Under the pieces are notes generated by a model. It searched no databases. It worked only from the letters and a program-made list of their open reading frames with translations, and was not told the origin of the DNA. 38,678 bases of DNA from a virus. The first letter of the stretch is position 1. Every line of letters begins with the position of its first letter. The stretch spans positions 1 through 38,678 of the IMG/VR virus record IMGVR_UViG_3300020438_000105; one strand, written 5' to 3'. The translations under genes were made by a program, and so were the position numbers. Of this stretch, positions 13,144 through 21,245 are shown piece after piece.

Positions 13144-13554
13144 ATGGAAAAACGAGATAAGATGAAAGCCTCTTTAGAGAAGAACTTGCCTACAGTACAA
13201 AATGATAGGCCAATTGAACTTGATAAAGATGTGAAAGATGATTATGAATTTTCACGAGACACTTACCGAGATTTAATTAACACTGGTGTTAGATCACTAG
13301 ATGTTTTGGCAGAACTTGCCAGGGAATCCGAACACCCAAGAGCATTCGAAGTATTATCCAAATCCATAAAAGATATAGGTGACACAACAGAAAAGCTTAT
13401 GGCTCTTCAAAAAACTAAGAAGGACCTTAAGAAAGAAGCTGATGAATCTAAAAGGATTACCAATAATAATGTATTTGTAGGTAGTACTACTGAACTACAA
13501 AGACTTCTATTAGATGATGGTGAAAAGGATAATGTTATAGATGTCGACACTTAA
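13144..13554 (+). CDS. 16: Terminase small subunit gp16
   Basis: DNA-packaging small subunit. The central helical coiled-coil region (YEFSRDTYRDLINTGVRSLD, HPRAFEVLSKSIKDI, then TEKLMALQKTKKDLKKEAD) matches the T4 gp16 family, which forms a ring that recognises concatemer DNA and stimulates gp17. Length 136 aa against 164 in T4. The C-terminus (VFVGSTTELQRLLLDD) is the segment conserved in marine relatives. It overlaps the gp17 start by 14 nt. Confidence 0.88.
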   Translation: MEKRDKMKASLEKNLPTVQNDRPIELDKDVKDDYEFSRDTYRDLINTGVRSLDVLAELARESEHPRAFEVLSKSIKDIGDTTEKLMALQKTKKDLKKEADESKRITNNNVFVGSTTELQRLLLDDGEKDNVIDVDT

Positions 13555-15148
13555 AAACGCACTCCTTGGTTATTTAGGAAATCCGTCTGTAAAAAAAGAT
13601 GGAGTTCAATCTCAATTTACTAAAGAAGAAGTATTAGAATATTCAAGGTGTATGAAAGACCCTTGTTACTTTGCACAAAAGTATGTAAAGGTAATCTCAC
13701 TTGATCAAGGATTAGTTCCTTTTACATTATACCCATATCAGAAAAAAATGTTTAAAGAGTTTAACAATAATAGATTTAATATTGTACTCGCGTGTAGACA
13801 GTCAGGTAAATCAATTTCATCTGTTATATTTTTATTATGGTATGCGTGTTTTCACCCAGAAAAAAATATAGCAATATTAGCAAACAAAGGTGCGGTGGCA
13901 AGAGAAATGTTATCCAGAATAACACTTGCACTTGAAAATTTACCATTCTTTCTACAGCCAGGTTGTAAGGCTTTAAATAAAGGTTCAATAGAATTTAGTA
14001 ATAATTCAAAGATTATTGCAGCTGCAACATCAGGTAGTTCTATTAGGGGTCTATCTATTAACTTGTTGTTCTTAGATGAGTTTGCATTTATTGATAATGA
14101 TGGTCAGTTCTATACATCAACATATCCTGTAGTTTCAGCTGGTAAAGACACAAAGGTTATTATTACTTCTACAGCAAATGGAGTAGGTAATGTTTTTCAT
14201 AAAATATGGGAAGGAGCACAACAAGGTACCAATGAATACAAACCATTTAGAGTTGACTGGTGGGACGTTCCGGGTAGAGATGACGAATGGAAAAGACAAA
14301 CTGTGGCGAATACTTCGGAATTACAGTTTGATCAAGAATTTGGTAACTCTTTTCATGGTAGAGGTAATACACTTATTGATGCAAACCACTTACTAACTCA
14401 AAAGGCCTGTGATCCTATATCGTATTCAGAAAATATATATCAGTATAAGGAGCCCGACCCTACACATGAATATATTATGACAGTAGATGTTGCGAAAGGT
14501 AGGAATCAAGACTACTCTACATTTACTATATTTGATATAACAACTAAACCTTTCGAACAAGTGTGTGTCTTTAGAGATAATAAAATATCTCCAATGTTAA
14601 TGCCTGATATAATATACAAATATGCCAATATTTACAATAAGGCTTATACAGTTATAGAAAGTAACGACCAAGGTGCGGTGGTATGTAATGGTCTGTATTA
14701 TGATTTAGAGTATGAAAATATATTTGTAGAATCATCTATTAAAAGTAGTGCGATTGGTGTTACTATGACAAAAAGAGTAAAAAGAATAGGTTGTTCTACC
14801 ATAAAAGATTTAATTGAACAAAAGAAACTTATGATATATGACTCGGAAACTATTATAGAAATGAGTACATTTGTTTCTAAGGGTACATCATATGCGGCAT
14901 CAGCACCTAATCATGATGACCTTATGATGAACTTAGTATTATTTGGTTGGTTCTCATCTACTGATGTATTTGAAAACTTAACTAATATTAATATGAAAAA
15001 TATGTTATATAGAGAGAGACTTGCCGAAATACAAGACGATATGTTACCGTTTGGATTCATAGATGACGGCGAAACTAATATAAATAAAGGTGAGAAAGGA
15101 GAAGATGGTAATATATGGTTTGAACAAGAGTGGAAACAGGGGTTTTAA
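13541..15148 (+). CDS. 17: Terminase large subunit gp17 (ATPase and nuclease)
   Basis: Packaging motor. The ATPase part shows Walker A ACRQSGKS (residues 84-91), Walker B LLFLDE (175-180) and coupling motif ITSTANG (208-214). The nuclease part has the RNase-H-like acidic residues D316 (TVDVAKGRNQDYS), E373 (VIESNDQG) and D460 (NHDDLMMN), which fit the three metal ligands of T4 gp17. Length 535 aa against 610 in T4. The stop TAA is directly followed by the ATG of the RimK-like gene, with a CAGGGG binding site inside the end of gp17. Confidence 0.95.
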   Translation: MSTLKNALLGYLGNPSVKKDGVQSQFTKEEVLEYSRCMKDPCYFAQKYVKVISLDQGLVPFTLYPYQKKMFKEFNNNRFNIVLACRQSGKSISSVIFLLWYACFHPEKNIAILANKGAVAREMLSRITLALENLPFFLQPGCKALNKGSIEFSNNSKIIAAATSGSSIRGLSINLLFLDEFAFIDNDGQFYTSTYPVVSAGKDTKVIITSTANGVGNVFHKIWEGAQQGTNEYKPFRVDWWDVPGRDDEWKRQTVANTSELQFDQEFGNSFHGRGNTLIDANHLLTQKACDPISYSENIYQYKEPDPTHEYIMTVDVAKGRNQDYSTFTIFDITTKPFEQVCVFRDNKISPMLMPDIIYKYANIYNKAYTVIESNDQGAVVCNGLYYDLEYENIFVESSIKSSAIGVTMTKRVKRIGCSTIKDLIEQKKLMIYDSETIIEMSTFVSKGTSYAASAPNHDDLMMNLVLFGWFSSTDVFENLTNINMKNMLYRERLAEIQDDMLPFGFIDDGETNINKGEKGEDGNIWFEQEWKQGF

Positions 15149-16219
15149 ATGAAAAGAAAATTAGTATCAAAATTAATGGAAAAAAGATATACACAAGAAC
15201 AGTTTGCTGAACATACTAGAATGCTCGAAGAAGAAGCAGAGAATTCGTCAAACTATAAATTTGTTTACCTATGGTATGATGATCCAGAAGATCCAGATGA
15301 CCCTGAAAAAACAGCAGACGACTTTATCGAAGAAGGTGAAAAATTAGGTATAAAAGCCTTTAAAGTGGATATTCAAGGTGCGTATTCAGATTTAGAAGGA
15401 ACCGATAGATATATCTATGATGGTCTTGCAGAAAAAGAAAGAAAGTTTAAAATAGATAAAGACACTATAGTATTTGTAAGAGCTCCATGTACTAAAAGAA
15501 AGGCATGGTCCAATTTCTTAACACAGTTAGAGAGAGCTGGTGTAGTGTGTGTTAATACTCGTGCCTGTATGGAAATTACATCAGACAAGTATAGAACAAG
15601 TTTATATCTTGCAGAAGCAGGATTAAGTCAGCCTAAAACAGTTTTAGTACATCATCAAGAAAAAGCCATAGATGCAATGAAAAGATTGGGTGGTAAATAT
15701 CCAATTATTCTTAAAACACTTACTGGTTCACTTGGTGTTGGTGTTATAAAAGTAGATTCAGAAAGTTCATTACATTCAACAGTTCAATTATTATATAAAC
15801 TTGATCCTAATATGGGTGTATTATTACAACAAATGGTATCTGTGGAATATGATATTAGAGCCCATATTGTTGGAGGTAAATATCACGGTGCTATAAAAAG
15901 ACCAGTAGTTGCAAAGGACTTTAGAAGTAATGTATCACTAGGTTCCAAACCTTCGAAAATAGAATTAACTGATTTAGAAATAGAACATTGTGAAAGAGCT
16001 GCAAAAGCAGTAGATGGTTTATGGGTAGGAGTTGATATATTTCCTTCAAAAAATAGAGAAAAAACACCACCAATGTTTATAGAGATTAATTCAACCCCAG
16101 GAACAAAGGGTTATAGAAAGGCTACAGGTGAAAATCTGGCCAAAAACATACTAATTAAGTTTAAAAATCGTGATATGTGGTTAAAACCTAATACATATAC
16201 TTCAATGTATGATGAATAA
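15149..16219 (+). CDS. RimK-like ATP-grasp ligase
   Basis: Member of the ATP-grasp superfamily, closest in motif layout to RimK-type glutamate ligases. The ATP-binding core begins near residue 140 (CMEITSDKYRTSLYLAEAG), with Lys189 and a glycine loop TGSLGVGVI (192-200), LLQQMV and EYDIRAHIVGGK (225-244), RPVVAKDFRSNVSLGSKPSK (251-270, like the FRSN segment of RimK), WVGVDI (292-297) and the metal-binding IEINSTPGTKG (311-321, D296, E312, N314). The N-terminal 110 residues differ from cellular RimK and include an acidic DDPEDPDDPE stretch. RimK adds glutamates to the C-terminus of ribosomal protein S6; the substrate here is unknown. It abuts gp17 and is last in the late unit, before gp18. Confidence 0.85.
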   Translation: MKRKLVSKLMEKRYTQEQFAEHTRMLEEEAENSSNYKFVYLWYDDPEDPDDPEKTADDFIEEGEKLGIKAFKVDIQGAYSDLEGTDRYIYDGLAEKERKFKIDKDTIVFVRAPCTKRKAWSNFLTQLERAGVVCVNTRACMEITSDKYRTSLYLAEAGLSQPKTVLVHHQEKAIDAMKRLGGKYPIILKTLTGSLGVGVIKVDSESSLHSTVQLLYKLDPNMGVLLQQMVSVEYDIRAHIVGGKYHGAIKRPVVAKDFRSNVSLGSKPSKIELTDLEIEHCERAAKAVDGLWVGVDIFPSKNREKTPPMFIEINSTPGTKGYRKATGENLAKNILIKFKNRDMWLKPNTYTSMYDE

Positions 16220-16238: not shown

Positions 16239-16246
16239 TATAAATA
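16239..16246 (+). promoter_or_regulatory. T4-type late promoter TATAAATA
   Basis: Exact late-promoter element in the 88-bp gap before gp18. The leader of about 60 nt ends with a GAGAGG ribosome binding site. It should drive gp18 and gp19. Confidence 0.82.
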
Positions 16247-16307: not shown

Positions 16308-17993
16308 ATGGCATTTCAAGTATCACCAGGCGTTCAGTTCAAAGAAATTGACGCAACGAACGTCGTACCGGCAGTCTCATCTTCTATAGGTGGATTTGCT
16401 GGCAGCTATAATTGGGGTCCCGTAGAAGAAATCAGAACAGTCTCATCTGAAGACGAAATGGCTTCTGTTTTCGGAACACCGGATCTAGTTACAGCTAAAT
16501 ACTTTTTAACTGCATCATCTTTTCTAAAATATGGTAGTTCACTTAAAGTTGTCAGGGTAGGAACAGGGCTTTTAAACGCTGTTTCAACTGATGATGAAGC
16601 AGGTGCTGGTACACCTTTACTAATAAAAAATGAAACAGATTATGCTGGCCAAACAATAGATGGCGTTTGGGCTGCAAAATATGCTGGTGCATTAGGTAAT
16701 AGTTTAAAGGTAGAAGTTTGTACTGCAGGCGGTGGATTTTCTGGGTGGAACTACAAAGGTAACTTTGCTGAAGCCCCTGGAACATCACCTTACGCAGGAA
16801 ACATTACCACATCTGTTGCAGATGAATTACATATTGTAGTAATAGATGAAGATGGTTTATTTACTGGAACAAAGGGACAAGTGTTAGAATCTTTTGGATT
16901 CTTATCACAAGGTCTTGATGTGAAAGATATAAATGGATCATCTGTGTATTATAAAGAAGTAATTAATAATAAATCAGACTATATTTGGTTTGGAGAACAT
17001 GATGATGTACTAGCAGAGGCGGGTCAAGCCGTTTCAGCAGTTGGTGCAGCATTTACGTCACCAAGTACAGTTAAAACATACTCACTTACAGGTGGATCCG
17101 ATGCAACTTCTGTTGCAGCCGGTGACATTACAGGTGGTTTAAATCTATTTGCAGATGTAGATACAGTTGATGTAAATCTACTATTTGCATTTCCAGATGC
17201 AAACACTACCAATACTATAGGTGAAAAATTAATTTCAGTATGTGAAGGAAGAAAAGATTGTATGGCATTTATTTCGCCACCAATCGACGACACAAAAAAC
17301 GCAACTACTCCAGTTGAAAATGTGTTGCAATATGAGACTACATTAACCGCGTCATCATACGCTTCACTTGATTCAGGTGCAGTATATGTGTATGACAAAT
17401 ATAATGATGTATATGATTGGATAGGTTCTGCAGGTTTATGTGCAGGCTTATGTGCAAATGTAGACAACGTGGCTGACGCATGGTTCTCACCAGCAGGTGT
17501 GAACAGAGGTCAACTATTAGGAGTCGCAAAACTTGCTCATAATCCAACAGCAACGCAAAGAGACCAACTTTATGTAGGTAAAGTTAATCCATTAGTATCT
17601 TTCCCAGGACAGGGAACTATGTTATTCGGAGATAAAACTCTTGCTGGAAGAGCTTCTGCATTTGATAGAATCAATGTAAGAAGATTATTTGTCGTATTAG
17701 AGAAGTCAATTAGTACTGCTGCTAAAGCACAACTATTTGAATTCAACGATGAATTTACTAGAGCTCAATTTAGGAACTTAGTTGAACCATTTTTGAGAAA
17801 TGTAAAAGGTCGAAGAGGTTGTGAAGACTTTAGGGTAGTATGTGACTCAACAAATAACACATCAGCAGTTGTTGATGGTAATAAGTTTGTTGCAGATATA
17901 TACATTAAGCCTTCAAGATCAATCAACTTTATTACTTTAAACTTTGTAGCCACAAGATCCGGGGTTGAATTCTCGGAAATAGCTGGTAATTAA
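16308..17993 (+). CDS. 18: Tail sheath protein gp18
   Basis: Contractile tail sheath subunit. The N-terminus (MAFQVSPGVQFKEIDATNVV, then VSSSIGGFAGSYNWGPVEE) is typical of phage sheath proteins. The C-terminal core has the conserved NVRRLFVVLEKSISTAAK and FNDEFTRAQFRNLVEPFLR, then GCEDFRVVCDSTNNT and a final ADIYIKPSRSINFITL beta hairpin that in T4 links neighbouring subunits. Length 561 aa against 659 in T4, the difference lying in the variable outer domains. Followed 12 bp later by gp19 in the same unit. Confidence 0.95.
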   Translation: MAFQVSPGVQFKEIDATNVVPAVSSSIGGFAGSYNWGPVEEIRTVSSEDEMASVFGTPDLVTAKYFLTASSFLKYGSSLKVVRVGTGLLNAVSTDDEAGAGTPLLIKNETDYAGQTIDGVWAAKYAGALGNSLKVEVCTAGGGFSGWNYKGNFAEAPGTSPYAGNITTSVADELHIVVIDEDGLFTGTKGQVLESFGFLSQGLDVKDINGSSVYYKEVINNKSDYIWFGEHDDVLAEAGQAVSAVGAAFTSPSTVKTYSLTGGSDATSVAAGDITGGLNLFADVDTVDVNLLFAFPDANTTNTIGEKLISVCEGRKDCMAFISPPIDDTKNATTPVENVLQYETTLTASSYASLDSGAVYVYDKYNDVYDWIGSAGLCAGLCANVDNVADAWFSPAGVNRGQLLGVAKLAHNPTATQRDQLYVGKVNPLVSFPGQGTMLFGDKTLAGRASAFDRINVRRLFVVLEKSISTAAKAQLFEFNDEFTRAQFRNLVEPFLRNVKGRRGCEDFRVVCDSTNNTSAVVDGNKFVADIYIKPSRSINFITLNFVATRSGVEFSEIAGN

Positions 17994-20352: not shown

Positions 20353-20592
20353 ATGCTGTCTTTTGCTGAACTTAGAGAAAAGACTACTAAATTGGCATCT
20401 GGAGAAAAACAGGTAAAAGCCTATAGAGGTGGTAAAAGGAAAAAGTTAGATGTAGTTATTGCCAAGAAAGGTAATAAATTCTCCGCGTATATTGATGGAG
20501 AAAGGTTGGACGATAACTATAAAAATGCAAAAGACGCTGAAAAATCAGTAAATGATTTTATCAAGCTAATGGGCGAGGAAATAGAAGTATGA
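20353..20592 (+). CDS. 68: Prohead core protein gp68-like, 79 aa
   Basis: Small lysine-rich protein (MLSFAELREKTTKLASG, then YRGGKRKKLDVVIAKKGNKF and AYIDGERLDDNYKNAKDAEK) in the gene 68 position. The C-terminal half resembles a short beta-hairpin plus helix module found in marine-phage versions. T4 gp68 is longer (141 aa), so assignment rests mainly on position. The end overlaps gp21 as ATGA, giving coupled translation. Confidence 0.7.
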   Translation: MLSFAELREKTTKLASGEKQVKAYRGGKRKKLDVVIAKKGNKFSAYIDGERLDDNYKNAKDAEKSVNDFIKLMGEEIEV

Positions 20593-21245
20593 AGCTTATA
20601 GCAGAATACATAGAAACAGATTTAGATGTCATAGTTGAAAAAGCAGCTAATGGTAAAAAGAATCTGATTATTGAAGGCGTGTTTATGCAGGCCAACAAGA
20701 AAAATAGAAACGGTAGAGTGTACGAAAGAAAAGTACTTGAATCTGCCGTAAACAAATATATAAAAGAACAAGTTCAAACTGGTAGAGCGGTCGGAGAGTT
20801 AAATCACCCTGACGGACCGACTATTAATTTGGACAAAGTTTCACACAAAATTACCGACCTTAGATGGGAAGGTAATGATGTTGTTGGAAAGGCATCTATA
20901 CTGCAAACCCCTATGGGAAAAATAGTTGAAGGATTATTAGAAGGTGGTGTAAAGTTAGGTGTCTCTAGTCGTGGTATGGGAACTCTTGTACAAAAACAGG
21001 GCGTTCAACATGTTGGTGGCGATTTTATGCTATCAACCGTTGACATTGTTCAAGATCCATCCGCTCCTGAAGCCTTTGTAAATGGCATCATGGAGGGGGT
21101 AGATTGGGTCTGGAATAATGGTGTTCTAGTTGCACAAGAAATTGAATCAATTGAGACTGAAATAAAAGAATCAAAATTAGTATCGGGCGATACTGAAATT
21201 AGAGCCTTTAAAAATTTCCTCTCTAAACTAAACTCTAAACTATAG
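20589..21245 (+). CDS. 21: Prohead core scaffold protease gp21
   Basis: Maturation protease that removes the scaffold and trims capsid proteins. Conserved His73 in GELNHPDGPT, Ser126/Ser127 in LGVSSRGMG and Asp in VDIVQDPSAPEAFVNG fit the catalytic signature of the T4 gp21 family (a herpesvirus-assemblin-like serine protease). Length 218 aa against 212 in T4. Lies between core proteins and scaffold gp22, as in T4. Its likely cleavage site in gp23 is after MISE (see gp23). Confidence 0.93.
   Translation: MKLIAEYIETDLDVIVEKAANGKKNLIIEGVFMQANKKNRNGRVYERKVLESAVNKYIKEQVQTGRAVGELNHPDGPTINLDKVSHKITDLRWEGNDVVGKASILQTPMGKIVEGLLEGGVKLGVSSRGMGTLVQKQGVQHVGGDFMLSTVDIVQDPSAPEAFVNGIMEGVDWVWNNGVLVAQEIESIETEIKESKLVSGDTEIRAFKNFLSKLNSKL

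What the first reader, a model, noticed from the sequence alone, without database searches (positions are those of the whole stretch)
15149..16219. RimK-like ATP-grasp ligase inside the packaging/tail late operon
A modifying enzyme lies directly between terminase (gp17) and sheath (gp18), abutting gp17, so it should be made late with virion proteins. Its motifs match RimK-type ligases that add glutamate to protein C-termini. Several late proteins here end in acidic residues (gp67 SKETKEEE, the 123-aa gene ESEEGGE, the 91-aa gene VTAEEA). Either a phage structural protein is tailed with amino acids or host ribosomal protein S6 is modified late in infection. The substrate is not known.
Basis: partly seen in the sequence, partly recalled or inferred. 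Interest (0 to 1): 0.75.

Follow-up and report, generated by a model that had tools for sequence, protein, structure and literature searches.

The report
Phage RimK ligase with capsid-targeting relatives
A marine T4-like phage carries an intact enzyme of the kind that adds glutamate tails to proteins, and in most of its phage relatives the enzyme begins with the short tag T4 uses to pack proteins into its head, so it may be injected into the host with the DNA rather than decorate phage parts.

Summary
The gene is real: 15149-16219 (+), 356 aa, starting on the base after the terminase gp17 stop, with gp18 sheath 88 bp downstream. It passes the curated RimK-family cut-off. A confident model (pLDDT 88.8) superposes residues 36-345 on whole RimK, and the catalytic residues are invariant in 59 relatives. 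It belongs to a phage-only clade (100/99 support) found in hundreds of marine virus contigs. Synteny gp17-RimK-gp18 holds in 60 of 76 close relatives; 13 carry it after regA instead.

New: the 15-35 residues ahead of RimK's own start are, in nearly all other lineages, a T4-type capsid-targeting peptide (FxxF/Y[IL]xE, cut by gp21). It matches T4 IPII/IPIII, or IPI in the window's sister clade. Basal members also carry a C-terminal RimB retropepsin, the eraser of polyglutamate. Most likely ancestral mode: made late, packed in the head, trimmed, injected, then tailing a host protein (S6 the leading candidate). In the window's own sub-clade the tag is degenerate although other proteins of a sister phage keep it, so packaging of this copy is unproven.

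Substrate unknown.

The parts
15149..16219 (+). RimK-family ATP-grasp ligase gene, 356 aa
   Evidence: fold
15149..15253 (+). codons 1-35: N-terminal extension absent from cellular RimK; MKRKLVSKLME|KRYTQEQFAEHTRMLEE|; position of the capsid-targeting peptide in relatives, degenerate here (LxE at 9-11 and 26-28; no aromatics at 4 and 7)
   Evidence: low pLDDT (43-61 in residues 1-30)
15254..16183 (+). codons 36-345: complete RimK fold (pre-ATP-grasp plus ATP-grasp); invariant K147, K189, Q227, D235, R237, R251, R259, N261, D296, E312, N314
15079..15086 (+). TATAAATA, T4-late-promoter-like, 70 bp upstream of the ligase start, inside the gp17 3' end
   Evidence: number of sites no more than chance; strand bias 10:0
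16239..16246 (+). TATAAATA, T4-late-promoter-like, 69 bp upstream of gp18
13541..15148 (+). gp17 terminase large subunit
16308..17993 (+). gp18 tail sheath
20589..21245 (+). gp21 prohead protease, the predicted processing enzyme
   Evidence: phrog_207, 4.8e-79

Best explanation
The gene encodes a catalytically intact RimK-family amino-acid ligase (shown by family, fold and residues) from a phage-specific clade whose ancestral form was virion cargo: a cleavable T4-type capsid-targeting peptide, then RimK, and in basal lineages a C-terminal RimB retropepsin. Inferred working: late synthesis, co-assembly into the prohead core through the N-terminal peptide, trimming by gp21 at [LI]xE, ejection with the DNA, then ATP-dependent addition of glutamate residues to the C-terminus of a host protein at the start of infection. 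Ribosomal protein S6 is the leading candidate because RimK and RimB are the known S6 polyglutamate writer and eraser. In the window's own sub-clade RimB is lost and the targeting peptide is degenerate, so whether this copy is still packaged, or only acts inside the cell that made it, is open.
For: RimK family over cut-off. VIA Z 29-30 to RimK (7qys, 7qyr, 5zct, 5zk6 RimK-RpsF) and ArgX/LysX over model 36-345 against residues 1-291 of RimK, so residues 1-35 are an added extension. Catalytic residues invariant in 59 sequences including cellular RimK. Phage clade of 35 rows at 100/99, apart from cellular and cyanophage RimK. N-terminal FxxF/Y[IL]xE in 33 of 33 distinct peptides, nearly all Mosig-like, with F and E invariant and the x positions mostly free; also in Melnitz, regA-clade, L057/L058, L201, L207 and L090. 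T4 control: strict motif found only in ipII and ipIII among 36 CDS; ipI MKTFKEFTSTTTPVSTITE has the form of the sister clade's MQNFNEFTAEKTVITE. 0 of 786 internal methionines in Melnitz match; shuffle rate 0.001-0.007. T4 rules (targeting residues 4 and 7, processing 8 and 10, L/I-X-E) from PMC9026906. RimK genes in L057/L058 sit among other tagged genes. PF05618 RimB domain over cut-off in Mosig and YerA41. RimB erases S6 polyglutamate and stimulates RimK; RimB-RimK hybrids occur in bacteria (PMC11957791). The YerA41 homologue is annotated as a structural protein, in a phage whose paper reports 63 particle proteins by LC-MS/MS.
Against: The window's own peptide fails the strict motif, while a phage of its sub-clade (G003, 64.7 kb) has four other proteins that pass: the tag may be lost here. 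No virion proteomics of a close relative was found. The YerA41 particle list includes a ribonucleotide reductase subunit, so carry-over is possible, and YerA41 lacks a clear tag. In the regA clade no late-promoter-like site lies within 500 bp upstream. No substrate was tested; host and host S6 tail unknown.
Confidence: 0.55

Rival explanations
1. The enzyme is not packaged in this phage: it is made late, remains in the cell and tails a host protein (S6 or another) during late infection.
For: Degenerate tag in the window sub-clade while other genes of a sister phage keep it; TATAAATA 70 bp upstream in the window and 66 bp upstream in L008; position in the late operon.
Against: N-terminal [LI]xE at residues 9-11 is kept in all variants of the sub-clade; the sister clade has an IPI-like tag; T4 head propeptides vary in length (7 residues in Alt to 65 in gp23, PMC9026906).
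Confidence: 0.4
2. It adds amino acids to the C-terminus of a phage head or tail protein, for example the acidic tails of gp67 or the portal.
For: Synteny with gp17/gp18 in 60 of 76 contigs; gp67 tails stay Glu-rich across relatives.
Against: Acidic gp67 tail also in T4, which gave no RimK match; portal tail not conserved; clade B has the gene next to regA, not to structural genes.
Confidence: 0.15
3. It makes or modifies a small metabolite or carrier (glutathione, F420/H4MPT glutamylation, LysW-type carrier) rather than a protein C-terminus.
For: MptN model scores 147 and LysX 121 bits; ArgX and LysX structures are as close as RimK; some relatives are annotated glutathione synthetase.
Against: Scores are far below the MptN (350), LysX (275.6) and GSH (272-408) cut-offs; C-terminal RimB partner in basal lineages; no pathway genes beside it.
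Confidence: 0.12

Closest known systems
Bacterial RimK (TIGR00768; E. coli, Pseudomonas), S6:glutamate ligase
   Same: Fold over its whole length, ATP-grasp residues, DFRSN-type motif
   Different: About 30% identity or less; separate phage clade; 35-residue N-terminal extension; below the E. coli RimK equivalog cut-off (79 against 331 bits)
RimBK hybrid (Desulfotalea; PMC11957791)
   Same: RimK joined to a RimB retropepsin, in basal phage relatives
   Different: RimB is N-terminal in the bacterial hybrid, C-terminal in the phage proteins; absent from the window protein
T4 internal proteins IPI/IPII/IPIII and Alt
   Same: Relatives share the capsid-targeting peptide and [LI]xE site; Alt is the precedent for an injected modifying enzyme
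   Different: Different enzyme; the window copy has a degenerate peptide
Cyanophage 'ribosomal protein S6 glutaminyl transferase' (phrog_2599; S-RIM8, S-RIM12, S-RIM32, S-CAM8)
   Same: RimK family in T4-like marine phages, sometimes near head genes
   Different: Separate clade; no N-terminal extension or tag
R2K clade ATP-grasp enzymes of phages (PMC4431377)
   Same: Phage ATP-grasp proteins proposed to modify host proteins
   Different: Other families; the window protein has no R2K match at E 0.01

Membership tests
RimK family (TIGR00768) | score over curated cut-off | tested here: met
   148.8 against 143.4 bits
RimK family (TIGR00768) | RimK fold and catalytic residues | tested here: met
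RimK family (TIGR00768) | ATP-dependent glutamate ligase activity | not testable with these tools
   needs an enzyme assay
S6--L-glutamate ligase equivalog (NF007764) | score over cut-off 331 | tested here: not met
   78.9 bits
T4 capsid-targeted internal proteins | N-terminal aromatics at 4 and 7 (or the same spacing) and [LI]xE site, in the phage clade | tested here: met
T4 capsid-targeted internal proteins | same, in the window protein itself | tested here: not met
   only LxE sites and FxxH at 19-22; strict and IPI forms fail
T4 capsid-targeted internal proteins | presence in virions, cleaved by gp21 | not testable with these tools
   needs virion mass spectrometry; YerA41 annotation is suggestive only
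RimB/RimK hybrid | PF05618 domain with DTG | tested here: not met
   absent from the window record; present in Mosig and YerA41
Glutathione synthetase | equivalog cut-off | tested here: not met
   50.9 against 272 bits

The most novel reading that the evidence does not exclude
Marine T4-like phages package a RimK polyglutamate ligase, in some lineages fused to its RimB eraser, in the capsid and inject it to retune host ribosomes or another host target in the first minutes of infection, a peptide-ligase counterpart of T4 Alt.
Probability: 0.5. Interest if true: 0.85.

Novelty: new variant of a known kind. Interest (0 to 1): 0.64.

Why it matters
Among phage-injected enzymes, T4 Alt shows that virion cargo can modify host proteins at once. 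An injected amino-acid ligase, with a ligase-plus-eraser fusion in some relatives, would be a different chemistry for host takeover, found here in hundreds of marine virus contigs related to phages of SAR11 and OM43 hosts. The targeting peptide also gives a simple sequence test for other head cargo in these phages. The library searched holds no paper describing it; subscription journals and preprints were not searched.

Tried and rejected
Small substrate gene between RimK and gp18 in the sister clade: the roughly 230-bp gap is an in-frame C-terminal extension of about 50 aa, not a separate gene. Acidic C-termini as substrates: T4 gp67 control argues against. 'Cellular' homologue L090 (Parcubacteria MAG): carries the phage tag and a DTG-containing C-terminal part, probably a misbinned phage contig. 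First structure model from 28 close relatives had a poor ATP lid; replaced by a 59-sequence model. RimB elsewhere in the window: none. Host S6 tails: SAR11/OM43 genomes could not be reached through the genome tool. Number of TATAAATA sites in the window is not above chance (10 against 7.5); only their strand bias is.

Full report
Observation. The ORF at 15149-16219 is real and abuts gp17; its neighbours are T4-type terminase large subunit and tail sheath. It scores over the curated cut-off of the RimK family but far below every equivalog: MptN, LysX, CofF, E. coli RimK and glutathione synthetase. Best solved relatives by sequence are Pseudomonas RimK (7qyr, 1e-23).

Fold and active site. With 59 aligned relatives the model reaches pLDDT 88.8. 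Residues 36-345 superpose on RimK residues 1-291 (Z 29-30, rmsd 2.7-2.9; ArgX and LysX equally close). RimK, LysX and ArgX cannot be told apart by fold. Lys147, Lys189, Gln227, Asp235, Arg237, Arg251, Arg259, Asn261, Asp296, Glu312 and Asn314 are invariant across phage and cellular sequences.

Distribution. 76 close relatives fall into: window-like and sister contigs with gp17-RimK-gp18 (60), contigs with regA-RimK (13; followed by a small ORF and DNA polymerase in L060), and three others. Melnitz and Mosig also have it after regA. Scans with Mosig and Melnitz proteins gave 221 and 68 further encoding stretches, with some overlap possible. A tree of 56 rows puts window, sister, regA-clade, Melnitz-like, Mosig-like, L090 and YerA41 proteins on one side of a 100/99 branch; cellular RimK and cyanophage RimK lie on the other (YerA41 is on a long branch).

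Targeting peptide. The extension ahead of the RimK fold was inspected in all lineages. T4 internal proteins carry a 10-residue capsid-targeting sequence: residues 4 and 7 target, 8 and 10 direct cleavage, and gp21 cuts after L/I-X-E (PMC9026906). A motif written from those rules finds ipII and ipIII only, among 36 T4 CDS. It also finds RimK in Mosig-like (MQVQPFKNYLEE), Melnitz (LTQKFSQFITE), regA-clade (MEAQKFRDFITE), L057/L058 (MKTFGAHLQE), L201, L207 and L090 proteins. In 33 distinct peptides F and E are invariant, the second aromatic is always Y or F, and the positions between are mostly free. No internal methionine of 786 in Melnitz matches, and composition shuffles match at 0.1-0.7%. The sister clade of the window (MQNFNEFTAEKTVITE) has the form of T4 IPI (MKTFKEFTSTTTPVSTITE). 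In L057/L058 RimK sits among several small genes with the same start. Exceptions within the clade: YerA41, L061 and the most divergent Melnitz-like rows L318-L320 fail the strict motif, though L318 and L319 keep LKDYIAE and LKQYLQE, with Leu in place of the first aromatic, a little further in.

The window copy. Its sub-clade has MKRKLVSKLMEKR... with LxE at 9-11, a more variable stretch, then FxxH and LxE at 26-28 in the nearest relatives. It fails both motif forms. A 64.7-kb phage of the same sub-clade has four other proteins that pass the motif, so the head system still reads it and this RimK departs from it. Packaging of this copy is therefore about even odds. A TATAAATA 70 bp upstream (66 bp in L008) suggests its own late promoter; all ten such sites in the window are on the coding strand, though their number is not above chance.

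RimB. Mosig and YerA41 proteins carry PF05618 at the C-terminus, over the gathering cut-off, with a DTG motif. RimB is a retropepsin-like protease that removes glutamates from S6 and stimulates RimK; bacterial hybrids have RimB N-terminal (PMC11957791). Window-like and Melnitz-like proteins lack it; the sister clade ends in about 50 extra residues that may or may not be a remnant.

Function. Shown: family, fold, intact active site, clade, tag in relatives, RimB partner in basal lineages. Inferred: glutamate as donor, packaging, injection, host target S6. Synteny with gp17/gp18 and acidic tails do not identify a virion substrate: T4 gp67 has an acidic tail and no T4 record matched the RimK query, and the gene sits elsewhere in sister clades. 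The YerA41 homologue is labelled structural in a phage whose particles were analysed by mass spectrometry, which fits packaging but may reflect carry-over.

Noticed in passing
L057 1655-9693; L061 2352, 3626, 4925; L051 4641; record behind L016 (G003) 48007-53964: Many other genes of these marine phages start with the same capsid-targeting motif: cytidylyltransferase-like, 5'-nucleotidase-like, DUF6267 and a weak ADP-ribosyltransferase match; a candidate set of injected enzymes.
   Followed up: partly
Melnitz L081 13272; L061 2352: DUF6267 (PF19782, phrog_455, no known function) carries the capsid-targeting motif in two phages, which suggests it is a head protein.
   Followed up: no
window, ten TATAAATA sites, all + strand: T4-late-promoter-like octamers lie 13-197 bp before gene starts and none is on the minus strand.
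   Followed up: partly
L013-L054, C-terminus of RimK: Sister clade has about 50 extra C-terminal residues ending NPIIEFNSQEVELIR; possibly a decayed RimB domain, not shown.
   Followed up: partly
L090 (PBQF01000074.1): Contig binned as Parcubacteria encodes the tagged phage RimK with a DTG-containing C-terminal part; probably a phage contig.
   Followed up: no
L062 and L060, end of regA: RegA in the regA-RimK clade ends in an acidic tail (read from the upstream DNA of L062; L060 ends ETDTPQDESTKV) directly before the RimK start.
   Followed up: no
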